A stretch of 64,000 nt of DNA from Branchiostoma floridae (lineage: Eukaryota; Chordata; Leptocardii; Amphioxiformes; Branchiostomatidae). The notes beneath the pieces were generated by a model. That model saw only the letters and a list, made by a program, of their open reading frames with translations, had not been told where the DNA came from and did no database searches. Positions 23,649-61,486 of this stretch are shown here, one piece after another. Made by a program: the position numbers and the translations under genes. The DNA lies in contig NC_049983.1 of assembly GCF_000003815.2 (NCBI RefSeq), forward strand, positions 16,212,437 through 16,276,436, given 5' to 3'. Position 1 is the stretch's first letter, and each line of letters opens with the position of its first letter.

Positions 23649-26600
23649 ATGTTCCTAGGCCTGCTGAGATGCCAGACTCCCAATCAGCCGTACTCCTCTG
23701 GCCCACAAGCAGCCTCCCACCCACAGCTGGATCCACCTGTCAAGCCGTTCTCAGCACTCCCTGAGCCCATGAAAGGCATGCCAGGGATTCTGAAGTTCCT
23801 GGTGGTCTTGTGTACCGGTGGCATGTCTCGAAAGGCACAGTTGAAAAGCCACATGATGATCGGCCAATTGTTTCAGATGTATGGTCCCATTTTAAGGTGA
23901 GTAGAACTTACTAGAAGTTCAATTTTCAATGTCAAGATGGGATTTTCTTGCTGATATGTCATCAACTTTGACAAAAGCTTTATGTCAAGTCAAGTCAAGT
24001 CAAGTCAAAGTTTATTGCACAACATTTGTAGAATGGGTACAATGTAAGCATGATACCATTTTCTGAGAAAAAGAAATTGTAAGGGGTTACTGTTACAGTC
24101 AAACCTGTCTATAGCGGCCACTCAAGGGACTGGAGAAAAATGGCCACTATAGACAGGTGGCCGCAATAGAGAAAATGTTGATCAGTTGACCACGAGCAAG
24201 TTAGACATGATTTCAGTTCCCACTAATCTTTCTCACCAAGTAACATTGTCTCGATCGGTAAATTCGCCGATAACGACTTGCACTTTAACGCTCATGGCAT
24301 GCATACCTTCCGCCACCGCCAAAATGACCCTTCGGGAACTGGAATCCTTGCAAACTATGATTTTAAACTGAGCGCAGGGTGACATAAGGCCGCCGTATGG
24401 TCGCAATAGGCAGTGTTTCTGTATCTACGGGACCGGAAATCGTGTGGCCGTGGCCGCGTTGGACAGGTGGCCGCTTAGCCTATTTCTTAATCATTACAAA
24501 TCCAAGGGACCGACAAAAAGTGGCCACTATGGCCAGGTGGTCGCTATGCAAAGGTGGCCGCTAATACAGGTTTGACTGTACATTCCTAAGTACTGTGTTT
24601 ACGTCAACTCTACAGATACCCTAAAACTACTTCTACCAAAAAAAAAGTGTTGTCAAGGACGGGGTTTTCAAAACCACCTCAGGATATATGTAACTGGTGA
24701 CATTTATCTCTTCAAATTCACCTTTTTTTACCTCAGTGAAAACAGAGGTATTGTTTGTGGTCTGTGTATGGTTGTCTTAGTATGTGTCTGCCATTATTTA
24801 GATATTGTAGAGACTTACTAGCCTGGTATCCAGACCTATCATGGCTCCCAAGTCTGTTCTGTCCTTTTCACAATTTGCAGAGAGGACACTGTGAGACTCG
24901 GGAGCTATAAAAGGCTTGGATACCAGAGAGACTGACAGAATGCGAGATTGAAGATGGTGCAATGGGTGACTCCCAGGATGGAATGGTTGGCTTAGCCAGT
25001 GTCTAAAATTGCATGGGCAGGAACTTAGCTTCTTCCTACGGTGCGAAAACAATTGACTCAAAGTTAANNNNNNNNNNNNNNNNNNNNNNNNNNNNNNNNN
25101 NNNNNNNNNNNNNNNNNNNNNNNNNNNNNNNNNNNNNNNNNNNNNNNNNNNNNNNNNNNNNNNNNNNCTTACATGTAGATCTCTCTTGAATGTAAGTTCA
25201 TCTGTGATGGTAGTTAACATAATGATACAATTTTAAGACTTTATATCCGTACACAAAATAAAGCGCTTAACCAACAAGCTTTTGATCAGTCCTCTGATCC
25301 TTCTCAAGTTGTAATGACCCAAAGCCTAAATCACACTTCCGGAACGGAAGTGTGACGTCATTAAAGGGTCAAAGGTGCTTGGTAGTCGGTATTCGGAAGT
25401 GTGATTTAGGTTTTGGGTCATTACAACTTGAGAAGGATCAGAGGACTGATCGATCTGCCCTTCGCTCCCAGAATGGCTCCAAATCTAGCATACCTTGTAC
25501 GATTGATGGCCACTCGGGTGCATCCGATATTGCTAACATGTGGAAGAACCACTATAGCGCACTGTTAAACTCCGTCAATTCTACCGCATATAAGTCACAT
25601 GTAAACAGCACTATTCAATCAGGTGTCTCGGACAATCCTGGAATGTCCATTACTGTTGATGAAATATGTGACGCCATTAATGAGCTGTCCAATGGTAAAG
25701 CATGTAATGCTAATTGTATTTCTGCGGAGCACCTGAAGTACGCAGGTCCCCGGCTGCATGCGCTATTGTCATTGTTGTTTTCCGCTGTGCTCAGACATGG
25801 TTATGTTCCACCTAGGTTACTTAGCACTGTTCTCATTCCGATCGTTAAGAAGAAAAATGGCAATGTGACTGACAAAGACAACTATCGCCCGATAGCGGTC
25901 TCCAGTCCGATATGCAAAGTTCTTGAAAGATTGCTTTTAAGGCGTCTAGATGAATTTTTACACTCTCCGGATAACCAGTTTGGTTTTAAAAACAGCATGG
26001 CACAGACCTTTGTGTATTTGCCTTGAAGGAGGTAATCCGTTACTACCAGAAACGTGGCTCTCCTGTATTTGTGGCCTTCCTAGACGCCTCTAAGGCCTTC
26101 GATCGTGTTAATCACTGGCTGTTATTTAAGAAAATGATCGACAGAAATGTACCACTTTACTTGATACGTTTACTTGTAGCCTGGTACAATGTTTTGACCT
26201 TTAGAGTACGTTGGGGCAATGTCCTTTCTGACAACTTTACTGCCACTAACGGAGTGCCACAAGGTAGCCTGATATCTCCTTTTCTGTTCAACGTCTATGT
26301 CTCTGTTGCTACATCGGAAATGTCATTGTGAACCATCTGTTGTACGCTGATGATATATGTATTATCTGCCCATCTGTTAAAGGTCTGCAAAAGCTAATGT
26401 CTTTATGTGAACGTTTTGGCTCTGAAAACCATATAGTGTTCAGCAAAAGCAAGAGCCAATGTGTATATTTTCCATGTGGTAGATTCAAATTGCACGGACC
26501 GCCTCCTTCAGTCACCCTTTATGGCACGAAATTGCAGTACGTTACATCTGTGAACTATCTGGGTAACCAGATTACCTCTGACCTGTTTGATGATGAGTCA

Positions 26601-29600
26601 ATTCGCTATCATGTCAGAGGGTTCTATACCAAAGCCAATTCCTTGATACGAAAATTCCGATTCGCCTCTCCTGGAGTGAAGCACGTCCTTTTTGATGCAT
26701 ATTGTTCCTCGATATATTGCGCTCAGCTATGGTGTCAGTATAACTTGGGTACGATTCGCAGGCTACGCGTAGCCTATAACAATGCTCTTAGGATTGTGTT
26801 AGGTTATCGAACGAGAGATAGTGCCAGCCAAATGTTTGTGACACATGGGATTGATACTTTTGTAGCTAGAAGGAGAAAACTAACGCATGCATTTGTACAA
26901 CGCATCGCCAAATCTACAAACAACATTATCTCCCGGTTATACCACTCAGATGCCTTCTTCCATAGCAAACTCTGGACACACTATGTGAATCTCGTTTTCA
27001 AAAGCCCAGGCTAATTTAACTTTTTTATTGTACATAAAGTGTATGTGTATTGTTGTATTGTATGTTTTTATGTGATAAGGGCCAAGAGCCTGCAATAAAG
27101 TTGAAAGTGAAATTGAAAGCTTGTTGGTAAGCGCTTTATTTTGTGTACGGATATAAAGTCTTAAAATTGTATCATTATGTAGATCTCTCTGTGTCTCCAC
27201 AGGAATAGATTTGGGAACTTTGATATGGTAAACACCTGCGACCCTGACGCGGCCCGAGAAGTCTTTAAGGTAGAGGGGAAGTACCCCGAGCGGCTGGACA
27301 TAGCTCCATGGAGGCTGCACAGGGAGGATGCTGGCAAGGAACTGGCTGTCCTGCTCGGGTTAGTCTTTTTGTTATGTTCTTTTTTGCCGGTGCTTAGAGC
27401 CGAGAGAAGCGGTTAGTTCAACCATGGATGGATGCATGGATCGGTCAATTTAACCAAACTCTTCTTATAGCCTTCTGTATGCACGATTACGCAATCAGCT
27501 AGCGTGGCCGAGCGGTCTACGCACTGGGTGGATATAGCGATTTGCTTTTGCAGCCGTGGATCGTGGGTTTGAACCCCACTTGTAACAATTTTTTTTCTTT
27601 GTTAGACAAATCTCATGTTATGTTTTTTTAATAGAAGACAGACCAATTTAGTAATTCAATGTTTAAAAACTCTTTTTTCATGTGATTTTGTTTAACATCC
27701 AGGCTTTTTGCAAAATACGCACCGGCCAGCTTTTTTCAGAAGCTTTCTTGTTTTATATCTGATGGAAGAACAGTAAGATAAAGGCTCAAGGAACTGCAGT
27801 TTTAGTTCTATCAGAGGGAGCAGTGCAGTTCCTGTATGTTCTGTCAGAGGGAGCAGTGCTAGTCTGTGTGTAATGGAAGTTTGTTAGAGGCAGTGCAGTT
27901 GTTGTACATGTAATGTACTTCATGAGTGGATAACATCTTCAATTTCCAATGCATTGTTTGATTGTGATCCCCTCCTCAGCAACGACAAGAAATGGCACAA
28001 GAACCGTACCGTGGTTAGCCGCCCAATGCTCCGTCCGCAGAGCGTAGCGGCGTACGTGCTGAAGATCGATGACGTAGCGACCGACATGCTCCAGCATATC
28101 CGATCCGTCAGGGCTGGACCGGAAGGGACAGAAGTGCTTGACCTGGAAAATGAGCTCTTCAAATGGGCTCTGGAGTGTAAGGCTATTTTCTCCTATCTAT
28201 GTTGCAGGTGTCTGGTTTGAACGTAATTGTTTAATGATTCGTGGAAAATGTTTTACATGAAAAAAGTGAATAACAAGTGAATATCTGTAGCATGTTGATT
28301 CCTACTATATCAAAGTAAGATATGGAATAATGTCAGGAGGTTTGGTAAATAAGTCATTTCAGAGACTTTAAATAGGTTGCAAGTTTGCATGGCAAGTCTC
28401 TGAAGTCTAATATTTCAACATAAACCTCTCATACATGTAATTTCTCTGGATAGACTCTTACAAAAAAGGTAATTTAAAGAAATCCTACACACACTTATGC
28501 AGCATAAGGAATCTCCAAGACATGCACACTTGAGATATCCTTTGAAGTATTCAAGACATACTTTTAACACAATCTTTTTTTAAAAATATGCAATGGCAGA
28601 GTGAAACGTTCAACACTTCCATAACATAAATATGCCCCCCTTAAAAGATAGGCATGTAATGACATTCATCCTTACATGCACTTTTCTGTGTTAAATCTGT
28701 TATACATCCAGCAATCTCAGCAGTTTTGTTCAACGAGCGTATGGGGCTCCTTCAGGATAACATTCCCCAGGATGCCCAGGACTTCATCAATGGTATGCAT
28801 GATGCTTTTGACTCCCTTACTCGGGCAATGACGCCAGATGCACGACTCCACAAGCTTCTGAACACCAAGAGTTGGCAAAAGAACAAGCAAGCATGGGACA
28901 CTGTTTTCAAGATAGGTGAGTGTGCTCAGTGAAATTGTTCATTATATAATTGTAGTCATGATAAGCTGATTACAAATGTACACTTTTTGTAGACTTTTCT
29001 GTAGTAGGTGTTCTTGGAAAACATCAGGACTATCATGCACATTGAGGTATCATTTTCAATGTGCCTGTTTGCTTGCTTGTCTGTGTTTATGCATTATGTA
29101 TTTTTCACTATGCTAGTCACTTTTACCGCAGAACAATATGGAGTGAAAGTCAAAGTTCCAGTGTGACAGGAAGTGAAGTTCAGAGTTTTGAGAATTGTTC
29201 ATTTATCAATCTTGTGAAACAATTGACAGATCATCCAGCCAATTTGAGTCAACAAAAGTGCCAGGACTTTAATATAATTTCACAAGGAGGTATTGTTTTT
29301 GGTCTGTCTGTCTTTTTGCTGTGGTTTGTGGAAATGACATGACGCTAGCCTTCTAATGCTAAATACTTTTCATTCATCAGGAGAAAAAGTGATGGACCGT
29401 CAGCTTCAGCGAGCGGAGGAGCGCCAGGCCCGAGGTGAGGCAGATGACGGACAGCTGGACTTCCTGTCGTTCATCAGCAGTAGGGAGAAACTCACCAAGG
29501 AGGAAATCTACGCCAACGCCATCGAACTGATGGGAGCAGCCATTGACACAGTAAATAGCACTTCAATGAGTATTACATTGAGTCAGCTGGTCACTGACAC

Positions 29601-32600
29601 TGTCCATGAGGTCTGTACAAGGTAGATGATACAGTAAAAGTGTTATACATATAGAATACAACATGGTGTATTCTGTATCACCCGAGGTACAAACTCGACT
29701 TGATGGTAGCCTGTGTGATAAAACTTCAAAGCCTGTGTGATATTGCTTTTTATCACCCAGTTCAGAACACCTGTATCAAATGTTATCGCAGCCAAGGTAT
29801 GACATAAATGACTGTACCATATCAATCAGCCGCGGGCATCAGGGGAGATGCATAGCGGCTGTAGACATATATATATTGAAATTTTGATAGTCCATATTTT
29901 GTTTGCAAAAGATGTTGGTCAGATGAACAATGAATTACTGCCTATATGTTAGTTTGAAGTTTTGAATATTAGTCTTTTGTGCACCTGACAGACCTCCACC
30001 ACCCTCCTCTGGACCCTGTACCAGCTGTGTCACCGACCCGACCTGCAGGACAAGCTGTACCAGGAGGTCACGCAGGTCATAGGTCAGGATGAGGTCATCA
30101 CCTTTGATCACCTGAAGAACCTGCACCTCTTCAAGGCTGTCATCAAGGAGACACTGAGGTGAATATAAAATAAGATATTATACTGTATAAAGAATGGATC
30201 TGTGAGGGTCTGCAAAACTCTGCATGAAAGGGTACCAAAATTACATTATTCAAATTCAGAAACTTTTGAGGCTACAATATTATGCAAAACTTGGTCACAT
30301 CTGTGCTTGGTACTGAACACCATCCACACACAGGTAATGACACCTGTCTCTGGTACTGAACACTTTCTACATGGCGGTAAACACGCCTGTCCCTGGTACT
30401 GAACACCATCCACACACAGACAAACATACCTGTCCTTGGTGCTGAACACCATCCACACAAGAGTTATCACATCTGTCCCTGGTACTGAACACCATCCACA
30501 CACAGGTAAACACATCTGTCCCTGGTACTGAACACCATCCACACATAGGTAAACGCATCTGTCCCTGGTACTGAACACCGTCCACACACAGGTAAATACA
30601 CTTGTCCCTGGTACTGAACACCATCCACACACAGGTGAACACATCTGTCCCTGGTACTGAACACCATCCACACATGTGGGTAAACACATCTGCCCCTGGT
30701 ACTGAACACTATCCACACACAGGTAAACACACCTGTCCCTGGTACTGAACACCATACACACACAGGTTAACACATCTGTCCCTGGTACTGAACACCATCC
30801 ACACATGTGGGTAAACACATCTGTCCCTGGTACTGAACACCATCCACACACAGGTAAACACATCTGTCCCTGAACACCATCCACACACAGGTTAACACAT
30901 CTGTCCCTGGTCCTAAACACTATTCACACACAGGTAACACATCTGTCCCTGGTACTGAACACCATCCACACACAGGTAAACACATCTGTCCCTGGTACTG
31001 AACACATCCACACATAGGTTAACACATCTGTCCCTGGTACTGAACACCATCCACACATGTGGGTAAACACATCTGTCCCTGAACACCATCTGCACACAGG
31101 TAATCACATCTGTCCCTGGTACTGAACACCATCCACACACAGGTTAACACATCTGTCCCTGGTCCTGAACACTATTCACACACAGGTAACACATCTGTCC
31201 CTGGTACTGAACACATCCACACATAGGTTAACACATCTGTCCCTGGTACTGAACACCAACCACACACACATACATGTAGTTTGGCAGCTTAGCTCTTCCA
31301 CTGCACCAAATCGGATATTTAAGCATACTTAATGTGATTCGTAAATGAAGCTTAAACATTTGAATATAATTAAGTTATCTTTAAGCTACATTTACGAAGT
31401 CGGAAATGCCACAACTAAAAGTCAATATTTACGACACATTTAAGAAAATCGTTAAGTTCACTTAAAGATATAAGTAACTTTACTTGTTCCTTAAGGTCAC
31501 TTAACTATGCATTAAAGATATAACAGTAATCTGTGCAGTTTTGCCAACACATTATAGATATATACTGACTAAAATAACCATCAATTTACTCTGCATTTTA
31601 ATTCGTTTATATACGATACCATTAAGCGTCCTTAAATATAGTTTAAAGCTATTTATTTAAGCTTCGTTTAAGCTACTTAAAGTGTGGGGTAGACTCTCAT
31701 TAGTCTTACTTGCAATTGTACTCTTCAACCAATGAATTTTGAAAACTACACTCCTTGACTTCTTGTCACATCATAGTTTATTCAAAAGCTTCTGCGGACA
31801 CGCCTGAGCAGGCAATAGGAGGAGCGGACTTTGTGTCCTTACAACGACTTTTAAAAACTACACATAAATAGAGACACCTATTACTAGTATGCATTGTCTA
31901 TATGTTCAAGCAAAAATGTAGTTTGATCTATTGATATATATTGTAGAGTTTCATATATGAAAGCAATTTTTAAACGTAACAGGACATCGATTATATAGCC
32001 AATTCAAAGGCGACACGTAGGAGTCCCGGCCTACCAGTCTAAGCAAAACAAAACAAACCATAATACAACTACTTGTACTTGGTTTAACGATGTGATAACT
32101 AATTCTCTAGAATAGGGCACGTTTTCAGCCTTGTAAATACCTGCACAATACCCAAAGATCGGCCAATCCAATACAGATAATAATAGCTCACAAATTGTGA
32201 TTAGCAGAGGGTTTAAAGAGAGTAAACGTCACTAGTCCATAAAAACAAACAACATGTAGTTCCGAGCGGGCCTTTTCTTTTGTTTATAAATCCACCGGCT
32301 AACCCACGCCATCTTTGTTTGAATTCATTTCTAAACTTGAAAACACTATCAAATACCGTAGACGCAACAAAAAACGTTGATACTGGATCCCATAAGACGC
32401 TGCACAGTGCGTGGATTTGACATTTCCTGTTTGACCCTAGCAAGAAGCTCCAAAATGCATACATTTTTGTTTCTTTTTCGTAGTTTGAATGTCGCGGATA
32501 ATCGCGCTTGGAGCACTCCGCGAATACAAAATGGCCGCTTAGTGACCGCTGAATTTATAACAAGAACCTTTGAAAGTTTGTTTGAGTTTTATCAAAGCAC

Positions 32601-35600
32601 TTGATTTTGGTCAAGCGGTGTGTTGTTCATTGCCACCTTCACTTAACTCTGAAAAATGTCAACATTACAAAAAAACTGTACATTTCATGTTTCGAGTTAT
32701 ATCTGGAGATAAACAAGGCAGAATTTGACCAAGTACCTTGATTTGACATAACAAACAACGCCGAAGGCGGAATATCGCCGCCATTTTGGATCTGGTTTGA
32801 GGCGTCTAGACGTTCTAGGGGAAACGTAACACTCTACGTAATTTGCAAAATAAGTTTAAATTGCCTAGGCATGCGGCCTATATACATTGTGACTGGCGTT
32901 CTAGCCGCTGGCGACCGAACTGAGCGTGTTGAATTTGGAAAAGAGAGCAAGCAAGTTCATAAAAACAAACTAGTTCCGAGCAGGATTTTTCTTTGTTTAC
33001 AATCTATAATTGGCTCAACGTTAACCCACGCCGTCTTTGTTTGGATTAATTCTTTAACTTAAAGGGACAGTTAAATGCCAAATTATATGGTAGATACAAC
33101 AGAAAGTCGTTGGTACAGGATTCCATAACGTTCATGCTTTCTGCAAACTCTTTATTATTAGATAAAAGCGCTGCAGAGTGCAAGCAGTTGACAATTTCCC
33201 GTCGGACGCCAACTTTGTTTCGATTCATTCCTAAACTTTACAACAATATATCAAATTAGAAACAACAGAAAATTGTTGCTATTGATTCTTCATAACGCTC
33301 ATGTCAACAATTTGAAATTTTCCAGTTTGACCCTAGCAAGAAGGTTCAAAGCCATAAATGTTTGTTTCTCTTTCATAGTTTGAATGTCGCGGGAAATCAC
33401 GCTTGGGGCGCTCCGCGAATACAAAATGGCCGCTACCGCTGAATTCATAACAAGAACCTTTGAAAGTTTGTTTGAGTTTTATCAAAGCACTTGATTTTGG
33501 TCAAGCGGTGTGTTCTTCATTGCCACCTTCACTTAACTCTGAAAAATGTCAACATTACAAGAAAACTGTACATTTCATGTTTCGAGTTATATCTGGAGAT
33601 AAACAAGGCAGAATTTGACCAAGTACCTTGATTTGACAAAACAAACAACGCCGAAGGCGGAATATCGCCGCCATTTTGGATCTGGTTTGAGGCGTCTAGA
33701 CGTTCTAGGGGAAACGTAACACTCTACGTAATTTGCAAAATAAGTTTAAATTGCCTAGGCATGCGGCCTATATACATTGTGACTGGCGTTCTAGCCGCTG
33801 GCGACCGAACTGAGCGTGTTGAATTTGGAAAAGAGAGCAAGCAAGTTCATAAAAACAAACTAGTTCCGAGCAGGATTTTTCTTTGTTTACAATCTATAAT
33901 TGGCTCAACGTTAACCCACGCCGTCTTTGTTTGGATTAATTCTTTAACTTAAAAGGACAGTTAAATGCCAAATTATATGGTAGATACAACAGAAAGTCGT
34001 TGGTACAGGATCCCATAACGTTCATGCTTTCTGCAAACTCTTTATTATTAGATAAAAGCGCTGCAGAGTGCAAGCAGTTGACAATTTCCCGTCGGACGCC
34101 AACTTTGTTTCGATTCATTCCTAAACTTTACAACAATATATCAAATTAGAAACAACAGAAAATTGTTGCTATTGATTCTTCATAACGCTCATGTCAACAA
34201 TTTGAAATTTTCCAGTTTGACCCTAGCAAGAAGGTTCAAAGCCATAAATGTTTGTTTCTCTTTCATAGTTTGAATGTCGCGGGAAATCACGCTTGGGGCG
34301 CTCCGCGAATACAAAATGGCCGCTACCGCTGAATTCATAACAAGAACCTTTGAAAGTTTGTTTGAGTTTTATCAAAGCACTTGATTTTGGTCAAGCGGTG
34401 TGTTCTTCATTGCCACCTTCACTTAACTCTGAAAAATGTCAACATTACAAGAAAACTGTACATTTCATGTTTCGAGTTATATCTGGAGATAAACAAGGCA
34501 GAATTTGCAAAAAAAACGTCTGACATTTCATGAATATCTTGAATGAACTGTTGTGTTTGTTATTGTTTTGTGGTGGCATGGCAGGACGATCCCACGCCAG
34601 GTAACAATGACTGGTCTTGGCACCCACGCCGATTTACAAAATGTGTGCCCGACAATTCACATGTCATTGTGTCTATCGGACATGTAAATTTTGATAAGAA
34701 ATAAGCCAATCACATGCAGTTTCCTTATGACGATGGCCAATCAGCGTTGATGATGCAAGTTTTGAATTTTTGAACTGAACACCTAGCGTCATTCTATGTC
34801 TAACGATTCTAGAGTGTGCAACGTTAACATTTTCACCGTTTTACAAAATGTCCGCGATTTCTCGTACTGACAACCCCATGGAACGAGGAGACAGCGAGAA
34901 CCTTGCCATCATCCTTCAGGATATGGTTAGGAAGTTTGAGTCTCAAACCGCAGAACTGCAGGCACTGAAGGCACAGCTCCAGGAGCAGGAACGCCGGCAG
35001 GCTAATCAAGAACCACCGCGGGACATCCGAGAGGACAGCCCGTCGCCAGGGCACGCTCGCCAACGCCGCAGGGTTCGGAGGAAATCCTCTATTCCATCCA
35101 CTTGCAGGGTAGGTGATTTATTTTGAGTTTTGTCATTTTGGTCATATTTGCATCATTGCCCGTACCCCAACCGGGCGCCGACGTCACAAATTTGTCCCGG
35201 TGGACGACCAGATACCGGGGTGTTGGGGTCCCCCAGGGGCCAGCCCGTGCCCCAAATGCCCGTTAGCCACGGGGCGTCACACGGGTCATGTATGGCTCAC
35301 ACCGGAACGACTGAAAAAAAGGGGTTCCAAAAAAGTGCCCGTAAAGTGCTGTTTGAGCCTTTTTTTCAATAATGTGACCGTAGCATTATTCAGGTAGTTG
35401 GTCAAACACATTTAACGCTTGTATCTGTATAGTGCTGGCCACTTATGTAGATACCTAGCACGCGTACTAGCAGGTTTTTAACAAGAAACGGACCGATGAA
35501 AACAGCTCTCCAGGCTAGCGTGCGAGCTTATTAGACCGCCAGCCATACACTTGTAGTAATTGACATATCAATGTCCCTTCTATCTTTCTAACTCAATTTC

Positions 35601-38600
35601 TCGATCACTAAAACAAAAGCAACAGCCAAATTAGACGTATTCCTCAATGACTGTTTGAAGGAATTTTCCCATGCGTGTGTTACAAACTTGCGCACAAAGA
35701 CAGCTAATACATTTGTTTAAAATGTTTTACAGGATGCCGTGCGCAAGGTGTACCGGGCGATGGAAGAAGGCGAAGGAGACTTTCAGGGCTTTCGGCTTAC
35801 TGAACGGTATAGCAACTCCTATCTAATAAGACAACTAAATCGTTTCTCTTGCCATGACATTGTCAAGACATGATAATAGTACCAGATGTACCTTTTTACA
35901 TTTTCATTATGTTAATATGACTCCCTTCCGTCAGTAATGACCATGAAAGAAACCCTATGATAACATCCTGTTTGATAATAGCTCCGCAAGTCTGTTCACC
36001 CTTTCAAATATAGTCACGACATAACACCATGACTTCTTTTAAAAGCAAGCCCTGAAACGAATTCCTCTAGTACTTGTAGATTGATAACATGATTTATTCA
36101 TTTTTTGGCATAGTATGGACTCAGCAGCCAACCAGCACATTGTGAAGATCTTGAGAGACGAGGTGATGAAAGAGCATGGAGGGCCTGAGAAGTGTCCCTT
36201 TTCATCAGCCGAACTGAAGGGTAAGTAAATTACACACCGAGTATGTAACATTAATCGTTTGAAGAAGCAAGCTCTGATTTCTCCCTAAATATCTTTTTTT
36301 TCAAACTGTAAATTCAGTGCAAGATGCAATTACGGTATACTGCAGCAGGGTTGGAGCAGTAAGTCGCATGTATTGTGCAAATAGCACTGACCTTTAAATC
36401 TCTACGGCCAGTTAGCAGAAACTTCACGGTGTCAACGATACTTTTACAAATCTTAGTTTCTATGGCGTTACCTTAGAACCTATATCAACTATTCAAACAC
36501 ATTTGCATATGTGACGACTAAGTCTTGTTGACTCAGGTAAAACCGGTTTTCCCAGTGACATCTCATGTATAGCAGTATTGGCCCTCTATGTAAAATTATG
36601 TCCGGAATTAATCTCCATATCTTATCCAGTTGTAGAAACCGATTTGCCTGCAAGTTTTAAGTTCATTTTCCTTCATTCTAGATGCTGCCAAGAGGTACTA
36701 TAGATCCAAGAGGGATGACCAGGTGCGGGCCCAGAAGGGGAAGTATGCGGAGCACCGACACTCGGTCAAAAGAAACGGGAGGCAGCAACAGGTTAGTCTT
36801 ATACACATGTAATGTCAAAGCGCAATTAATACCTGTAGGATTAAAAGTTAACATATGAAATCGTGATTCTGAAGTTTTGTGACTCGTTCTCATCAACTTT
36901 TCAATCCAGGAAAATAACGCCACAATGTTACTGAGAGCCGGTATTTCTTTATATCAAGGAAAAAAATACTTATAATATATAGGAGATTGTCTCTTGAAGC
37001 ACGGTTCTCATCTATTGCATTGTTTAATAGTATTTCACTCCATACCACAGGAATATATACCAATTTGTATGCATATCATTTTTTTATTATTCTTACACCA
37101 AAAAGCACATTTTAGCCATCGTATTACAACCAAGTGACACTTGATAGTTAGCTGTATAGTATATACTTCACCATGGAGAAATGTTTGACATCAGGCTCAT
37201 ATCTCATTTCAGAAACTGGCGAGACGACGAAAGGCGTACAACCTGGCACGCGACAGCTGGTCAGAGAAGTCTAGGAGACGGGCGGAGGAGACTCTCCACA
37301 AAGACTTCATGTCGTCGGAGTCTTCCGACAGTGAAGTGGAGGGGCCGAAAACCTTCAAGGTCAGAAAGCTGGCCTGGGAGTCAGGAAAGATGACCAAAAT
37401 CAAGGAGTCGCTGGACGCTGTCGTGCCACTTCGGGGCTCTCCTCGAATCCCTTCTCGTGAGCTTTCGGACAGAAAAGTACCAGAGGGGACCCCGGAGTGG
37501 GCGATCAGCAAAAGGTATCAGAACGGCAGAGCACCAGCAACTGACGTCAGCGAGCTGAGACTTGAGTTGGATAGCGAGTAGGACGACAGACAATTAGGAG
37601 CAGATTTTGTTTGATTAGTTTAGTGTAGCAGTTTTTTTCTCAAAGAGTTTTCAAAGTCAAGTTTGTAGCCACAGAATAGTCGTTTGCAACAACCAATTTG
37701 AGTAATTAACGTCAACATTTGTTTGTCCTTTATACTATGTAAACACAATTTACTACTAGTAATTACGGTCCCTGTGAGTTAGTGTTTTTACATGTTCAAC
37801 CGGTTTTTCCAGGTATGTTTACTTGTATTGAATTATTCTACCAGTTAATGAACCCTTGTAAAACTGAAGAGAGTGATTAATGTCACCCGAACCGCCTGTA
37901 AGTCGGAAATATTTCATTGTTATCGAATTCAATATCGTTTTTTGACATTCATAAATGAGCTATGTTTTTAATCGGTTTAAGATAATCTGATACAACAAAA
38001 TGCTGTTTTCAATGTGATTGCCTTGTGTATATGGAACTCTGAGAAGAGAATAAAAAGAATGTTGACTTGATATTGTGGACTGTTTGTCAATATTTCAGGT
38101 TAAGTCAATAGCATTCTTACAGGGATGTATGCTTGCTGCAGCATACACGGTTACACGGCATATAATACTATTCATCACACAATATTTAAGGAGCATTACG
38201 ATTCTTAAAAGCAGCTTAAATAGAATATTTAAGGCTATATTAAAATACTTAAAACCTACTTAAACCAGACGTAAGGCAAAAAAAAATATACGATTTAAGA
38301 TACATTTACGGTGCTTAAACAATGTTTAAACATTTGGATTTAAGCTTAGTTTAAAGTTGCTTAAATGTGTGCCACTACGTGCGCTTTACGGACTATTTAA
38401 GTCGACGTATGACACTCAATTTAAGCAGCATTTACGGTGCTTAAACGCTGTGTAAACGTAAGAATTTAAGCATAGTTTACGATACTTAAAAGTTGCTTAA
38501 ATGTGTGCCACAACGTGTCATTTACGGACGCACGTAATCATAGCTTAAATATAATATTTCCGAATGCGTAAACATGACGTAATGTAACTTAAAGAATGCC

Positions 38601-40748
38601 AATACGGTACCCTTAAGCACACTTTAAGAGTGCTTAAAGAGCAGTTTTCATGCAGTGTTCCTACTGTACACACAAATAGCATTTGACCCATCTGTGTTTA
38701 AAAGATTGTTTTAGAGACCGTGTAATAAATTGTTTTGTTTAATTGATGCAGGTTGCATCCTGTAGCCTTCGCCATAACTCGTGTGATTCAACAGGACACT
38801 ATTCTCATGGGGTACGAGATTCCTGCAAAGGTGAGCAGTAGGGGTGGGTACCGGTACAGAAAATTCAGGTCCAGGTCCGGTTCAGGTCCAGAGGATTAGG
38901 TCCAGGTCCGGACCTGAACCTGGACCTGATGCAGTATGACTCATATCAATGGTCCATTTCACTAAAAAGAAATCTGTTTGGTGGAGTCTTAGACTTACAC
39001 TGGCGTTTTAAAATCCTACAACGCTAACTGCACCTGTACGATTGGCTGTAAAACTTGGTAGAAATTTACTATAAACTCTACTCTACTTTACCCTTGTTAT
39101 TTTCTTCCACCTGCAAGCGCCAAAATGTGTGAATGCCTGATAATATAATCTGTTAATTTTCTAATCGGTCAAACATCCGGTCCACCTAATTATTTCAGGT
39201 CTGGTTTTTCTGGACCGGTCCAATGATAAAAACCGGTTTTGTACCGGTACGCTGTACCGATACCCAGCCCTAGTGAGCAGTGTTTTCTTCTTAATGACTG
39301 TAGGAAGATTCCCCCCCCCCCCACACACACACTTTCTGTCAGCTCACTTGTCTCCAAATACTTCATAAGAACCCCCCTTAACAATACATCTCGTGTATTA
39401 TTTGCAGCCAATAGGTACCAATTTTTTTTAGTAATGAGGCTGATTTACATGCTTGAGGCACCTCCTTGAACAGGAGACCCTTTTGACATCAGTTCCGAAA
39501 GACAAATTCGTGAATTCTTGGTCGGGCTACAGCATCCAGTCTTCCTTAGTGGTCTCCCATCCAAGCACTGAGCAGACTACACATTTATAAGTTGAGATCG
39601 AGGGAATTGGGTGTATCAATGTGCCACACTGCCATTATCCACACACTCACACACACCAATGTACCAATCTTCATCCATATCTTTCCTTCTTGTTGTTGGT
39701 ACAGACTGTTGTGATGGTGAGCCTTTATGACATGGCCCGAGATCCCCGGCTCTACAAACACCCTGAGGAGTACCGGCCTGAGCGCTGGCTCCGGGGTGCA
39801 GAGGACTACGTGGACACCCATCCCTACGCCTACCTGCCGTTTGGGTTTGGAACGCGCAGTTGCATTGGTGAGTTTGGCATGAATCATATAAATCTTCTCC
39901 ATGGCAATGACGATCCTTGTTGTTGAGAGTTGATTTTGTTGGAACAAATGCCTATTGCATTTAGTAATGCATCAATGGTATTCTTCACAATAATACACTG
40001 ACTTGTGCCGGTGTTTCATTCTTGAGAGAGCCTCAATAACATCTTTTTATCTAGCAGAGTTATGATAGTTGATGTTAACTAATTAGTATGGCAGTCTCTT
40101 CTCTGTTTAGCCAACAAAGTTAGTTTTTCCTTTATCAAGCATAGGCATAACTTATCAAGCTTAACAAATTCGGGTATCTAGGTACAAAAAGTGTCACCAG
40201 GCTTTAGAAACTACATGTATTGTCAGATTGTTGTGTCTGATCTCCTTTTTAAATAACATTCCTTATCTAGGACGACGAGTGGCAGAAACCGAGTTGCAAG
40301 TACTTCTGGCAAAGGTGAATAGAGCTTCTTTTTTAAAATTCAGATCTTAAGTTTAAGTTTTCTTTCACATGACCAACTTCTTCCAACATGGCAATGTTTC
40401 TGTAGTCCTAAATCTACCACTTTTTTCTGATGCATTTGGACAAAAACACATTAAAGACACCATAATGATGATAAAAGAAATTCAATACTCAGTGGTGCAA
40501 CATCACTCTAAAGGAAGGTCACAAGATCTACCAAAATGAAAACACCGGTAAACTAAAAAATTGGATAGCATGAAAAGTCTCGATTGAACATTAAAGACAT
40601 TTTAAAAAACTTCACTTTATATCTTTGCCCACAGATTTGTCAGCAGTTTGTTCTGAAGCAGAGGAACCCCAGAGTCATCCCTGCCATGACAAAAGGAATT
40701 TTGATGCCAGCTGAGAAAATGGACATTTGCTTCATTGAGAGGCAGTGA
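23649..40748 (+). CDS. Cytochrome P450, mitochondrial clan (CYP11/24/27-like)
   Basis: Haem-thiolate monooxygenase, probably of the inner mitochondrial membrane and fed by adrenodoxin; the substrate (sterol, steroid or secosteroid in relatives) cannot be told. Exons: 23649-23896, 27203-27358, 27980-28176, 28712-28915, 29381-29550, 29992-30158, 38752-38830, 39705-39867, 40271-40314, 40635-40748. All junctions are GT-AG and all phases agree; the sum is 1542 nt, 513 aa. Motifs: PFSALPEP near the N terminus, I-helix GAAIDTTST (about 319-327), ExxR in KETLR (about 377-381), PERW (432-435), haem loop FGFGTRSCIG (453-462, ligand Cys460) followed by RRVAE, typical of mitochondrial P450s. The ATG at 23649 is the only in-frame start seen, and its leader is weakly basic for a mitochondrial presequence, so an upstream exon is possible. 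AATAAA at about 40966. Confidence 0.93.
24096..24578. mobile_element. Tc1/mariner-type MITE, 483 bp
   Basis: Terminal inverted repeats 'cagtcaaacctgt.tatagcg' and 'cgctaatacaggtttgactg', flanked on both sides by TA (24094-24095 and 24579-24580). This matches the TA target duplication and CAGT ends usual for Tc1/mariner. The interior is made of repeated 'gtggccactat' and 'aggtggccgc' motifs. No transposase frame. It lies in P450 intron 1. Confidence 0.85.
25068..25167. other. Assembly gap (100 N)
   Basis: Placeholder-length gap in P450 intron 1, just before the inverted-repeat frame around the LINE. No exon is missing, because the flanking exons join in phase. Confidence 0.95.
25284..25451. 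repeat. Inverted repeat, about 60-bp arms
   Basis: The arm at 25284-25343 ('gatcagtcctctgatcctt' to 'aaatcacacttccg') is inverted at 25391-25451. About 47 bp lie between the arms, starting with a small palindrome 'ttccggaacggaa'. The right arm abuts the start of the LINE coding remnant. Confidence 0.85.
25445..27113 (+). pseudogene. 5'-truncated non-LTR retrotransposon (CR1/Jockey-type RT), frameshifted
   Basis: Reverse-transcriptase domain in three frames. Frame 1 to about 26010 has NYRPIAVSSPICKVLERLL and NQFGF. Frame 2, about 26012-26310, has FLDASKAFDRVNHWLLF and NGVPQGSLISPFLFN. Frame 3, about 26310-27014, has the catalytic YADD box and a long C-terminal region ending KSPG-stop. There are at least two frameshifts, and no endonuclease domain, so it is inactive. 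An AATAAA and 'gttgaaagtgaaattgaaag' tail follow at about 27095-27112. It has the same orientation as the host P450 gene. Confidence 0.9.
27499..27585 (+). tRNA. tRNA-like sequence (probable pseudogene or SINE head)
   Basis: A-box-like 'gtggccgagcggtcta', a T-arm 'gtgggtttgaaccccac' with five perfect stem pairs, and a long variable region as in Leu/Ser tRNAs. The acceptor stem pairs at only about four of seven positions, so a functional tRNA is unlikely. It is followed by a T-run. The A-box motif tggccgagcggt recurs at 23436 and, inverted, at 20602. Confidence 0.45.
30290..31268. repeat. 45-bp minisatellite in P450 intron 6
   Basis: About 22 copies of a unit containing 'catctgtccctggtactgaa' and 'caccatccacacacaggtaa', with occasional 12-bp deletions. 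Because the unit is near a multiple of three, the minus strand is open for 224 codons and encodes DRCV(Y/N)LCVDGVQYQGQ-like repeats; this is a by-product and not a gene. Confidence 0.95.
32230..34507. repeat. 890-bp tandem repeat inside the CACTA-like element
   Basis: From about 32490 the sequence repeats at an 890-bp offset (for example 32871 and 33761). There are two near-identical units and a partial third ending at 34507, where copies diverge after 'ggcagaatttg'. Shorter diverged sub-repeats (ccgagc, acccacgcc.tctttgttt) recur inside each unit. Each full unit contains 'cgccgccattttggatc' and 'acaaaatggccgct', resembling YY1-type sites. No coding potential beyond small frames. Confidence 0.9.
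34848..37581 (+). CDS. 306-aa nuclear-type protein of the CACTA-like element; C14orf93-like (tentative)
   Basis: Exons: 34848-35108, 35733-35806, 36114-36220, 36682-36791, 37213-37581 (stop TAG). All junctions are GT-AG, phases agree, and the total is 921 nt. Residues about 17-55 are a Leu/Gln/Glu-rich coiled coil (LAIILQDMVRKFE...). Residues about 70-83 are a basic patch (RQRRRVRRK). Residues 88-210 are helical and strongly basic with AVRKVYRAM, HIVKILRDEV, SSAELKDAAKRYYRSKR and ARRRKAYN. About 217-228 is acidic and Ser-rich, then KVRKLAWESGKMTKIKESLD. From memory, the order of helices, basic linker, acidic patch and final helix resembles vertebrate C14orf93; this needs an alignment. DNA or chromatin binding is an inference. 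It lies inside the element in the same orientation as the P450. AATAAA at about 38049. Confidence 0.82.
38839..39272. mobile_element. hAT-type MITE, 434 bp
   Basis: Ends 'taggggtgggtaccggtaca' and (inverted) 'taggg.tgggtatcggtaca'. The 8-bp direct repeat GTGAGCAG is at 38831-38838 and 39273-39280, the 8-bp duplication characteristic of hAT. The interior has palindromic 'ggtccaggtccggacctgaa'-type motifs. The left GTGAGCAG is also the splice donor of P450 exon 7. A fragment with similar 'ggttcaggtcc' / 'ggacctgaacc' motifs is at 45513-45562. Confidence 0.93.
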
Positions 40749-43280: not shown

Positions 43281-44785
43281 CTAGGGTTTCTCACCCGTGT
43301 GAGTCCGCATGTGGCTCTTAAGATGACCCAGCTGACTGAACTGCCTGCTACACTCCTCACACTTGAAGGGTTTCTCACCTGTGTGAGTCCGCATGTGGCT
43401 CTTAAGATTACCCATCTGACTGAACTGCTTGCTGCACTCCTTGCACTTGTAGGGTTTGTCCCCTGTATGAGTTCTAAAGTGAGCATTCAGTTGATGTGGA
43501 TGACGAAACTGCTTGCTACACTCCTCACACATGTATGGTTTCTCACCCGTATGAGTCCGTATGTGACTCTCAAGATTGGCTAGTAGACTGAACTGCCTGC
43601 TGCACTCTTCACACCTGTAGGGTTTCTCCCCTGTGTGAGAACGCATGTGCTTCTTAAGATTACCCAGCTGACTGAATTGTTTGCTGCACTCCTCACACCT
43701 GAAGGGTTTATCACCTGTGTGAGTTCTGATGTGTGTGTTAAGAGTAGCCTGCTGACTGAACTGCCTGCTGCATTCCTCACACTTGTAGGGCTTTTCCCCT
43801 GTGTGAGTTCTAAGGTGTCTATTCAGATGATGTAGGTCAGTGAACTGCCTGCTGCACTCCTCACACCTGTAGGGTTTCTCCCCTGTGTGAGTCCGCATGT
43901 GACTCTTAAGATGCCCCAGCCGTCTAAACTGCTTGCTGCACTCCTCACATCTGTATGGTTTCTCTCCTGTGTGAGTCCGCATGTGACTCTTAAGATGCCC
44001 CAGCCAAGTAAACTGCCTGCTACACTCCTCACACCTGTAGGGCTTCTCTCCTGTGTGAGTCCGCATGTGCTTCTTAAGATCTCCCCGCTCTCTAAATTTC
44101 TTGCTACACTCCTCACACATGTAGGGCTTCTCACCTGTATGAGTCCGCTTGTGACTCTTAAGATTACTCAGGGTACTGAACTGTCTGCTGCACTCCTCAC
44201 ATCTGTAGCGTTTCTCACCTGTATGAGTGCGCATGTGCACCTTCAATGCGAAAAGCTGCCTGAACTGACTGCTGCACTCCTTACACTTAAAGGGTTTCTC
44301 CCCCGAGTGAATCCGCAGGTGTGTCTTTAAGCTATCTTTCATGCTAAACTGCCTGCTGCACTCCTCACACTTGTACAGTTTCTCCCCTGTATGAGTGAGC
44401 ATGTGTGTCTTCAGATTACTCAGGGTAGTGAACTGCTTGCTGCACTCCTCACACCTGAAAGGTTTCTGACCAGTGTGAGTTAGCATGTGAGTTTTCAGGC
44501 CAGCTGGTAGCCTAAACTGCTTGCTGCACTCCCGACACTTATAAGGTTTCTCACCTGTGTGAGTCCGCAAGTGAGTCATCAGATTATCAAGCCTACTGAA
44601 CTGCCTGCTGCACTCCTCACACCTGTAAACTTTCTCTCTACTTGACCCCTCCCCAGACTCCTCACGTCTTTCTCCTTGCCAGGTGAGAACACTGTCAGCA
44701 GAACCCCCTGCTGCTCCTCTCCTGACATCATCCAAACCTCGTACACTGTCTGTTGTCGCCATTTCAACAGCATCTGAATCAAATT
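43281..44785 (-). CDS. C2H2 zinc-finger protein, 16 fingers, terminal exon
   Basis: Likely sequence-specific nuclear DNA-binding protein. One large exon runs from an acceptor (tattgcag, exon starts 44785) to TAG at 43281-43283. The first in-frame ATG inside the exon is at 44762 (MATTDSVRG), giving 493 aa; upstream exons may add an N terminus. After about 50 residues without a recognised KRAB, SCAN or BTB domain come 16 back-to-back 28-aa fingers of form (Y/F)xCxECSxQF-x5-L-x2-H-x3-H joined by TGEKP-type linkers, all with Cys and His intact. Frameworks are nearly identical while the helix positions that contact DNA differ, as in expanding finger families. The protein stops exactly after a TGEKP linker with decayed fingers beyond, so this C terminus is probably a recent truncation. 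Confidence 0.93.
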
Positions 44786-45109
44786 CTGCAATAAAAACAA
44801 TATTCATTATTTATAAAACATGGATATTATTTCAAGTGGAATTTTCCACACTGAATTGGGGAGGGAATAGTAAAACAGGTGTAAACTAAACATTTCCCCC
44901 AGGTTGCTAGCTTTTTTAGGTGATAAAATGTAACGTTACAGGCTACATCAACATACACAGACCAGCTCCCCTGTTCCAGGGCCTTCACTAACATAGTTAT
45001 GATAGTAACCATTCCACATAGGCCGGCTTAGGGGTGTATCACCAGATCTAGTCTGTCAAAAAAACCTCAAGGACCTATTAAAAAAACCTCCAGGGCCTAC
45101 ACAGGTCAA

Positions 45110-53939: not shown

Positions 53940-54985
53940 GAGAGGTGTCGGCTTGAGTGTTGAGGGTACTATGTCTGTCTTGCGGAGACGTGTCGGTGTC
54001 TTGAGACGTATTGTCTGTGTTTTGACTCCTGAGTGTTATTGAGACGTTTTGGGATGCATCTTCAGAGGTCCTGGGTTGTGTCTTGATCGAAGTGTTAACG
54101 TTGTGTGAGTCTTGAGACGTGTTGGGGTGCGTCTTGTGAGTCTTGAGACGTATTGTGTGAGTCTAGAGAGGTGTTGGTGTGTGTTGAGCCGTGTTGGGTT
54201 GTGTCTTGAGACGTGTTGGATTGTGTCTTGAGACCTTGTTGGGTTGTGTCTTGAGATGTGTTGAGTTGTGTCTTAAGACGTCCTGAGGTGTGTTGAGTGT
54301 GTCTTGAGACGTGTTGGGTTGTGTCTTGAGACGTGTTGGGGTGCGTCTTGAGACGTGTTAGATTGTGTATTCAGACGTGTCGGGGGATGTCTTCAGACGT
54401 GTTGGGTTGTGTCTTGAGACGTGTTGGGTTGCATCTTGAGACGTGATGGGTTGTGTCTTGAGACGTGTTGGGCTGTGTACTGAGACGTGTTGGGTTGTGT
54501 CTTGAGAGGTATAGGGTTGTGTCTTGAGACGTATTTGGTTGTGTCTTGAGACGTGTTTGGTTGTGTCTTGAGACGTGTTTGGTTGCGTGTCTTGAGACGT
54601 GTTTGGTTGTGTCTTGAGCGGTATTGTAAGATTCTTGAGATATGTTGTGTGACTCTTGAGAGGTGTTGGGTTGTGTCTTGAGACGTACTGGTTGTGTCTT
54701 GTGAGTCTTGAGACCTGTTTGGTTGTGTCTTGGGACCTGTTTGCTTGTGTCTTGGGACCTGTTTGGTTGTGTCTTGAGACCTGTTTGGCTGTGTCTTGGG
54801 ACCTGTTTGCTTGTGTCTTGGGACCTGTTTGGTTGTGTCTTGAGACGGTGTTGGGTTGTGTCTTGAGACGTATAGGGGGTGTCTTGAGACGTGTTGGAGT
54901 GCATCTTGTGAGTCTTGAGACGTGTTTTGTGAGTCTTGAGACGTGTTGGGTTGTGTCTTGAGACGTGCTGGGGTGCGTACGTGTC
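53940..54985. repeat. 21-bp minisatellite, GTCTTGAGACGTGTTGGGTTG
   Basis: About 45 copies of a unit close to 'tgtcttgagacgtgttggg', more regular after 54180. A sub-block with 'ggacctgtttg' variants is at 54710-54840. It ends about 40 bp before the crystallin start codon. The minus-strand open frame of 224 codons (TQPNTSQDT-like) reflects the 21-bp (7-codon) period and is not a gene. Confidence 0.95.
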
Positions 54986-60711: not shown

Positions 60712-61486
60712 GGTGCATTTTAGAACCATTCTTCCAAAGTTCAAACCGATCTGGACAATCTTGTTAGCTGGACTGACAAGAACTACATGCAGCTTAACCC
60801 AACTAAATGCATGGTGATGTACATAAAATATGCTTCCTGTGAAGACCGCCTGAAACTCCCAAACTGTTTGTTGGCACATCTGAACTTGAAGTTGTACACA
60901 TGGCCAAGGTCCTGGGTGTAATACTACAAGCACACTTGAAGTGGACTGCACATGTAGTAATGATTGTGGGCAAAGCTAACCGCCGCCTTTACATGATTAG
61001 GTGTTTGAAGAAACACGGTCTGAGCACTATAGTACTTGTGTACATAGGGTTTGTCCGCCCCACCCTGGAATACGCCTGCCAGGTTTGGCACCCTGGTCTT
61101 ACAGTAGAACAGTCACGTATGATAGAGCGTATCCAGGTTAGAGCCTGTAAGATTATCCTTGGTCGCTCCTACAGTTCCTACAGTTCGGCACTGCAGGTGT
61201 GTGATCTGGAACATTTGCATGTAAGACGTAAGGCTCACTGCCTCAAGTTTGCCAGATCCCTTGTCCATTCTGAGGTTTTCGACTGGCTACCACCACGCCG
61301 CTCTGAGGCACATGGTAGAGGCCTCAGAAACGCTGACAACTTCACTCAGTTTAAGTGTAGAACGGCTCGTTTTAGGAACACTACGCTCCCATACTGTGTC
61401 GACCTTTTAAATTCATGTTAGACTTCAGATGTCACTTTTTAATTTTCCTTAATAGTGATGTTTTAGATTGAAATGAGATTTTATTA

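What the first reader, a model, noticed from the sequence alone, without database searches (positions are those of the whole stretch)
31299..38657. CACTA/EnSpm-like transposon carrying a spliced 306-aa C14orf93-like gene and no visible transposase
Seen: CACTGCA/TGCAGTG ends, a 3-bp TTC flank duplication, TTTAAG-rich subterminal repeats on both sides, and one clean five-exon gene inside. Known: CACTA elements have CACT(A/G) ends, 2-3 bp duplications and subterminal repeats, and plant members encode a second DNA-binding protein besides the transposase. Inferred: this basic, coiled-coil protein may be the element's TnpA-like partner that binds the subterminal repeats. If it is truly related to vertebrate C14orf93, that human gene could be a domesticated transposon protein.
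Basis: partly seen in the sequence, partly recalled or inferred. Interest (0 to 1): 0.88.

Follow-up and report, generated by a model that had tools for sequence, protein, structure and literature searches.

The report
CACTA transposon carrying C14orf93-related partner gene
A lancelet jumping gene of the CACTA kind carries a second gene distantly related to the human gene C14orf93, and other lancelet CACTA elements carry clear C14orf93-family genes beside their transposase, so the human gene may descend from a jumping-gene helper protein.

Summary
Confirmed and extended. Window 31299-38657 is a mobile CACTA/EnSpm element: 8 of 8 close genomic copies have CACTGCA...TGCAGTG ends, different flanks and perfect 3-bp duplications. 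It lacks a transposase through internal deletion: 3 of 8 copies keep about 5 kb more, with an intact 884-aa ORF (Transposase_21, E 8.6e-19), head-to-head with the 306-aa gene. The 5 copies that lost it break at 3 different points, yet 4 of 5 keep the 306-aa frame; exons are under purifying selection.

The 306-aa protein does not hit Pfam DUF4616 (the C14orf93 family) directly. Profile-profile comparison links them (E 1.3e-9; shuffle control passed), and all four introns match in place and phase. A second lancelet CACTA family carries genuine DUF4616 genes (E 9.7e-34). Genome-wide, 13 of 37 such loci lie within 30 kb of a Tnp2 transposase (0.18 expected if uniform), 9 of 13 head-to-head. Three fish C14orf93-like models begin with the transposase's N-terminal motif.

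Best reading: a conserved TnpA-like partner of chordate CACTA elements. That C14orf93 is its domesticated descendant is likely but unproven; direction, binding and expression are untested.

The parts
31299..38657 (.). CACTA/EnSpm element, 7359 bp, transposase-deleted copy
   Evidence: same ends in 8 of 8 close copies, each with 3-bp duplications
31296..31298 (.). target-site duplication TTC, left
38658..38660 (.). target-site duplication TTC, right
31299..31305 (+). left terminal inverted repeat CACTGCA
38651..38657 (-). right terminal inverted repeat (TGCAGTG on +)
31299..31698 (.). left subterminal CTTAAA/TTTAAG repeats (9 hits)
   Evidence: 500 shuffles, mean 0.9, max 4
38178..38657 (.). 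right subterminal CTTAAA/TTTAAG repeats (20 hits)
   Evidence: 500 shuffles, mean 1.1, max 5
34503..34516 (.). approximate junction of the internal deletion that removed the transposase gene (about 5 kb in longer copies), with a shared TTTGCAAAAAA at the joint
   Evidence: three longer copies continue here into about 5 kb with the transposase ORF
34848..35108 (+). accessory gene exon 1 (predicted coiled coil, basic tail)
35733..35806 (+). accessory gene exon 2
36114..36220 (+). accessory gene exon 3
36682..36791 (+). accessory gene exon 4
37213..37581 (+). accessory gene exon 5, with FMSSESSDSE motif and stop
32545..34500 (.). internal repeats spaced 890 bp
   Evidence: family D1 starts at 32545, 33435 (99%) and 34325 (68%)

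Best explanation
The window element is a non-autonomous deletion copy of a two-gene CACTA/EnSpm transposon. Complete copies encode a Tnp2-type transposase on one strand and, head-to-head on the other, a coiled-coil basic accessory protein that is a distant homologue of C14orf93 (DUF4616). The accessory protein most likely works like plant TnpA: it dimerises through its N-terminal coiled coil, binds the element's subterminal repeats and brings in or regulates the transposase, which full-length copies supply in trans. Shown: element, family transposase, gene frame, homology, recurrent pairing, selection. Inferred: DNA binding, dimerisation, partnership, and that vertebrate C14orf93 is a domesticated descendant.
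For: 8 of 8 copies with ends and 3-bp duplications; transposase ORF with Transposase_21 E 8.6e-19 in 3 of 8 copies, 884 aa differing by 1-3 residues; 306-aa frame intact in 6 of 8 copies, splice sites in 8 of 8; exon divergence 0.7% against 1.8-5.1% in introns and 5.1% upstream, pN/pS 0.17, 10 of 15 variable codons synonymous (binomial p 3e-4); three distinct deletion breakpoints among the 5 copies without transposase. Homology to DUF4616. A DUF4616-carrying CACTA family. Pairing: 13 of 37 loci within 30 kb of a Tnp2 locus (0.18 expected if uniform), 9 of 13 head-to-head. Three fish gene models, of 43 proteins compared, with the transposase N-terminal motif. Human C14orf93 (sequence recalled; Pfam 1014.5 bits) matches lancelet relatives at 33-37% identity, E down to 2e-28, and the transposon-carried 370-aa protein at E 1e-20.
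Confidence: 0.78

Rival explanations
1. Gene capture: CACTA elements picked up a host C14orf93-like gene, which rides as a passenger; the human gene is the older host gene.
For: CACTA elements in plants are known to capture host gene pieces (recalled, no call). C14orf93 is highly conserved between human and mouse (PMC5322522 passages). The tree does not resolve direction (support 0.000 at the human node).
Against: The same head-to-head pairing recurs beside transposases only 33-62% identical to that of the window family; frames are kept under selection in copies without transposase; with midpoint rooting the human protein falls between two groups that contain transposon-carried proteins (unsupported).
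Confidence: 0.2
2. The accessory protein is not a DNA-end binder but a silencing antagonist or transcriptional regulator of the element, acting on the host or on the region between the two genes.
For: Head-to-head layout with roughly 0.9 kb between the putative starts in the C19 copy (inferred); plant TnpA itself regulates the Spm promoter (PMC1636069 passages).
Against: None direct; dense subterminal repeats at both ends and retention in non-autonomous copies fit end binding equally well.
Confidence: 0.25
3. Passive retention: the gene has no role in transposition and survives because copies are young.
For: Long aligned pieces of the 8 copies are mostly 92-99% identical; two of 8 copies already have frameshifts.
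Against: Exon divergence is far below intron divergence and pN/pS is 0.17; a predicted B. belcheri homologue covers the protein at 69% identity.
Confidence: 0.07

Closest known systems
Plant CACTA elements En/Spm (TnpA and TnpD)
   Same: CACT-type ends, 3-bp duplications and subterminal repeats (recalled), a Tnp2/Transposase_21 transposase plus a second protein, both required (PMC1636069 passages).
   Different: In Spm the two proteins come from one alternatively spliced transcription unit; here the genes are head-to-head on opposite strands and the second protein is related to C14orf93. Similarity to plant TnpA was not tested.
SmTRC1 of Schistosoma mansoni
   Same: Animal CACTA-related element with Transposase_21 and extra non-transposase proteins proposed to do TnpA's job.
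   Different: SmTRC1 ends begin with CCC and 7 of 14 copies had 2-bp duplications; its extra proteins had no detectable relatives in other animal or fungal elements, whereas this partner family is found in lancelets and fish.
Vertebrate C14orf93 / RTFC / 4931414P19Rik (Pfam DUF4616)
   Same: Homologous core, linked through the lancelet DUF4616 proteins by profiles and introns: basic stretch, N-containing helix, YY/RR helix, M-S-D/S-E-E/S-D motif.
   Different: The human protein is 538 aa (recalled) with a long N-terminal part; reported as nuclear and also secreted, molecular function unknown (PMC5322522 and PMC10163356 passages); not known to sit in a transposon. Its exon phases were not checked.

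Membership tests
CACTA/EnSpm superfamily | Terminal CACT(A/G) inverted repeats | tested here: met
   CACTACA in the second family
CACTA/EnSpm superfamily | 2-3 bp target-site duplication | tested here: met
   8 of 8 close copies; 9 of 9 relatives with both ends found, of 13 looked at; in the DUF4616-type family and its short relatives C5:3.6M and 10 of 10 more, 9 by script and C12 read by hand because its stretch was cut one base off
CACTA/EnSpm superfamily | Subterminal repeats at both ends | tested here: met
   for the window family; in the DUF4616-type C5 element the same script found no enriched 6-mer
CACTA/EnSpm superfamily | Tnp2-type (Transposase_21, PF02992) transposase in autonomous copies | tested here: met
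   (68 bits, cut-off 28.6); absent from the window copy itself
CACTA/EnSpm superfamily | DDE/D catalytic residues of the transposase | not tested
   Catalytic residues not mapped
Pfam DUF4616 (PF15394, C14orf93) | 306-aa protein passes the curated cut-off | tested here: not met
   no DUF4616 hit up to E 1; hence called a distant homologue, not a member
Pfam DUF4616 (PF15394, C14orf93) | 370-aa protein of the C12 CACTA element passes the cut-off | tested here: met
   117.7 bits, cut-off 27
Homologue of DUF4616 (wider family) | Significant profile-profile match, collinear | tested here: met
   E 1.3e-9 over 187 columns (with two sequences only: E 1.6e-6); one search score 74.0 against a maximum of 25.3 in 150 column shuffles, reversed 14.1
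Homologue of DUF4616 (wider family) | Shared intron positions and phases | tested here: met
   phases 0,2,1,0 in both genes; on the alignment introns 2-4 fall at the same columns and intron 1 just before the paired D88/E101 (read by hand)
TnpA-like CACTA accessory protein | Encoded by the element together with a Tnp2 transposase | tested here: met
TnpA-like CACTA accessory protein | Binds subterminal repeats, needed for excision | not testable with these tools
   Bench work required
TnpA-like CACTA accessory protein | Sequence similarity to plant TnpA | not tested
   No plant TnpA was compared
Known DNA-binding fold | Model of the core matches a solved DNA-binding domain | tested here: inconclusive

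The most novel reading that the evidence does not exclude
C14orf93-family proteins are the conserved second component of chordate CACTA transposons, present in lancelet and fish elements, and human C14orf93/RTFC, whose molecular function is unknown, is a domesticated copy of it: a human gene of CACTA origin.
Probability: 0.6. Interest if true: 0.87.

Novelty: new variant of a known kind. Interest (0 to 1): 0.82.

Why it matters
The second protein of animal CACTA elements has been an orphan: the S. mansoni study found no relatives of its candidates in other animal or fungal elements (PMC1636069, passages). A family shared by lancelets and fish supplies one. It also gives a concrete hypothesis for C14orf93/RTFC, for which published domain searches found nothing beyond a signal peptide and nuclear signals (PMC5322522 and PMC10163356, passages): look for sequence-specific DNA binding and transposon-derived partners. 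The passages I saw of a review of human transposable elements name domesticated genes from Transib, P, Harbinger and Crypton, none from CACTA (PMC5753468). My searches found no paper holding both C14orf93 and a word starting with transpos and none holding DUF4616; the titles and abstract starts listed for EnSpm + amphioxus + transposase (3 of 3) and CACTA + Branchiostoma (10 of 12) do not announce such a protein. Only open-licence papers are held.

Tried and rejected

Alternative that the extra 5 kb is an insertion in long copies: rejected, because the short copies break at three different points.

C6:26.1M element: its gene-side end looks like a changed CACGGCACGAAATC and the other end was not found in the 1.7 kb read; no duplication claimed. 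C1:31.13M element: no CACT(A/G)CA ends found in the 1.3 and 1.6 kb read. Enriched 6-mers in the termini of the DUF4616-type C5 element: none found. Tree of 26 sequences: human position unresolved. The right-end search of the window family was asked three times, never answered and left. The protein-database search with the DUF4616 alignment returned 37 proteins, 34 with PF15394, all lancelets or bony fish, no mammal. The DUF4616 genome search also rang weakly, below cut-off, in 1 of 14 control genomes.

Co-location details: one search used 30 DUF4616 loci (37 rows less 7 upstream exons of the same loci), of which the 26 with E up to 0.1 entered the count; 11 306-type loci (from 59 rows after dropping the 8 close copies and extra exons); and 42 transposase loci merged without the 3 close copies. 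Many of these matches are weak, and searches are lower bounds (51 of 100 candidates scored). The uniform expectation ignores clustering of elements on C6 and C9. Some pairs are probably copies of one element (C1/C15, C17/C235, judged by equal scores).

Full report
What is there. The reported anatomy is correct. A 7359-bp element runs from CACTGCA at 31299 to TGCAGTG at 38657 between TTC duplications. CTTAAA/TTTAAG motifs crowd both ends, 9 in 400 bp and 20 in 480 bp, against maxima of 4 and 5 in 500 shuffles each and only 4 hits in the 6479 bp between. Inside lies a five-exon gene of 306 codons with GT-AG introns. NCBI holds the same protein for Branchiostoma floridae (P0001, 99%) and a 69% identical one for B. 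belcheri (P0002); both are predictions.

It is a mobile element. The window's own genome (513 Mb, 431 contigs) lists 47 matches to the left 902 bp, 33 starting exactly at the first base (not all candidates were scored). I read the 8 best (96-100% identical there) from end to end. All 8 have both ends, different neighbours and perfect 3-bp duplications. I fetched 13 more distant relatives; both ends were found in 9 (eight of 2.5-2.9 kb, one of 6.4 kb), and all 9 have 3-bp duplications.

The transposase was lost by deletion. Three copies (C19, C5:21.3M, C13:1.2M) are 11.5-12.6 kb and hold about 5 kb more than the window just upstream of the gene. That segment has an 884-aa ORF on the opposite strand with Pfam Transposase_21 (tnp2), E 8.6e-19, differing by 1-3 residues among the three. 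Upstream of it on the same strand lies an open frame with a CGHC...H motif, presumably the transposase's first exon; the splice was not shown. The two genes are thus head-to-head. The five copies without transposase break at three different places, so deletion happened several times; 4 of these 5 keep the 306-aa frame, and splice sites are kept in 8 of 8 copies. The C19 and C5:21.3M copies have both frames intact; C13:1.2M has the transposase frame but a 1-bp deletion in the accessory gene.

The accessory gene is under selection. Mean pairwise divergence is 0.7% in exons, 1.8-5.1% in introns and 5.1% in the 340 bp upstream; pN/pS over the 6 intact copies is 0.17; 10 of 15 variable codons are synonymous where 23% of sites are (p 3e-4, treating codons as independent). 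Among the four intact copies without transposase it is 9 of 13. The left 600 bp are also conserved (1.0%), as expected of ends that must be recognised.

C14orf93. Scanning the 306-aa protein against Pfam gave no DUF4616 hit. Searching the genome with DUF4616 itself gave 37 matches, 14 above the curated cut-off, several with near-equal scores on different chromosomes; four of them were aligned and are 95-98% identical over long stretches, so this family is multi-copy here. One, at C5:3.60 Mb, lies in a 7493-bp element AAA|CACTACA...TGTAGTG|AAA together with a Tnp2 transposase ORF in head-to-head orientation. Of the 40 listed matches to its left 732 bp all 40 start at the first base (40 of 78 candidates scored), and of 46 listed matches to its right 662 bp 38 end at the last (40 of 66 scored). 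Ten further copies or short relatives were checked for duplications: 9 of 10 have equal 3-bp flanks by script, and the tenth (C12) was cut one base off and reads TAG/TAG. The C12 copy (5996 bp) encodes a 370-aa protein over five exons that matches DUF4616 with 117.7 bits, E 9.7e-34; neither nor one search lists a transposase there, the same loss as in the window (about 1.5 kb of this copy was not read). NCBI names several relatives 'uncharacterized protein C14orf93-like' or 'C14orf93' in lancelets and bony fish (34 of 37 proteins carry PF15394).

Are the two accessory proteins related? Profile-profile comparison of the 306 family (5 sequences, two of them fragments) with a DUF4616 lancelet/fish set (11 sequences) gives probability 96.4%, E 1.3e-9 over 187 columns. 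In my own runs the score was 74.0, against a maximum of 25.3 in 150 column shuffles and 14.1 for the reversed profile. Both genes have four introns with phases 0, 2, 1, 0. On the alignment the phase-2, phase-1 and second phase-0 introns fall at the same columns (R112/G121, D148/A151, Q184/R190), and the first lies just before the paired D88/E101 (my reading of that alignment). I take homology as established.

Recurrent pairing. Among 37 distinct DUF4616- or 306-type loci, 13 lie within 30 kb of one of 42 other Tnp2 loci, against 0.18 expected if placed uniformly; 9 of the 13 are head-to-head, where random orientation and side would give about a quarter. The other 24 have no transposase found near, many matches are weak, and elements cluster on C6 and C9, so the expectation is too low there. 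The orientation bias and the two families with mapped ends are the stronger evidence.

Fish. Three of the fish gene models (Limanda P0016, Poecilia P0021, Aulostomus P0031) begin with the CGHC/CDHC...H motif of the lancelet transposase frame (phmmer E 1.1e-7, 1.7e-6 for P0021 and P0016, 1.4e-3 for P0031, among 43 proteins; P0016 and P0021 also in the alignment). The other proteins lack it. This suggests that the two genes are linked in fish as well, there on one strand, but these are predicted models and no fish genome could be read.

Human gene. It matches the lancelet proteins, among them the transposon-carried 370-aa one at 37% identity, E 1e-20, and the DUF4616 lancelet/fish profile with probability 99.7%. 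Directly against the 306 family it is weak (22%, score 31 against a maximum of 21 in 40 shuffles), so that link is transitive. The tree does not resolve direction. Published work found no functional domain in C14orf93 and reports nuclear localisation and also secretion (passages).

How it probably works. By analogy with En/Spm, where TnpA and TnpD are both essential for transposition and TnpD stabilises TnpA on DNA (PMC1636069 passages), the accessory protein would bind the subterminal repeats as a coiled-coil oligomer and assemble the ends for the Tnp2 enzyme. The AlphaFold model of the DUF4616 protein P0005 shows a confident 52-residue N-terminal helix and a helical core followed by two strands, with no solved fold above background. 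Short copies such as the window's would move with transposase from the long copies. DNA binding, dimerisation and transposase contact are inferred.

Verdict. New here: the head-to-head two-gene layout, the second CACTA family with true C14orf93-family genes, and the shared introns. Left open: whether host C14orf93 came from the transposon or the reverse.

Noticed in passing
window 30296-31268: 43-bp minisatellite of about 23 copies ending some 30 bp left of the element's left end.
   Followed up: no
window 32300-34624: Internal repeats spaced 890 bp, variable in number between copies of the element.
   Followed up: partly
window 43281-44810, minus: 509-aa open frame rich in C2H2 zinc fingers (fingers recognised by eye).
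   Followed up: no
window 25298-27014 and 60843-61421, plus: Open frames that look like reverse transcriptase pieces (recognised by eye, no search made).
   Followed up: no
window 54290-54975: 22/44/66-bp tandem array open in three minus-strand frames.
   Followed up: no
P0006, P0007 (Branchiostoma proteins): BTB domain fused to a DUF4616 core; possible host genes made from the transposon protein, or the reverse.
   Followed up: no
L015 4240-8259 (G000 C14): The C14 copy of the element carries about 4 kb of another insertion near its left end.
   Followed up: no
G000 C9 about 0.3-3 Mb and C6 about 19-28 Mb: Many degenerate Tnp2 and DUF4616/306 fragments cluster in these two regions.
   Followed up: no
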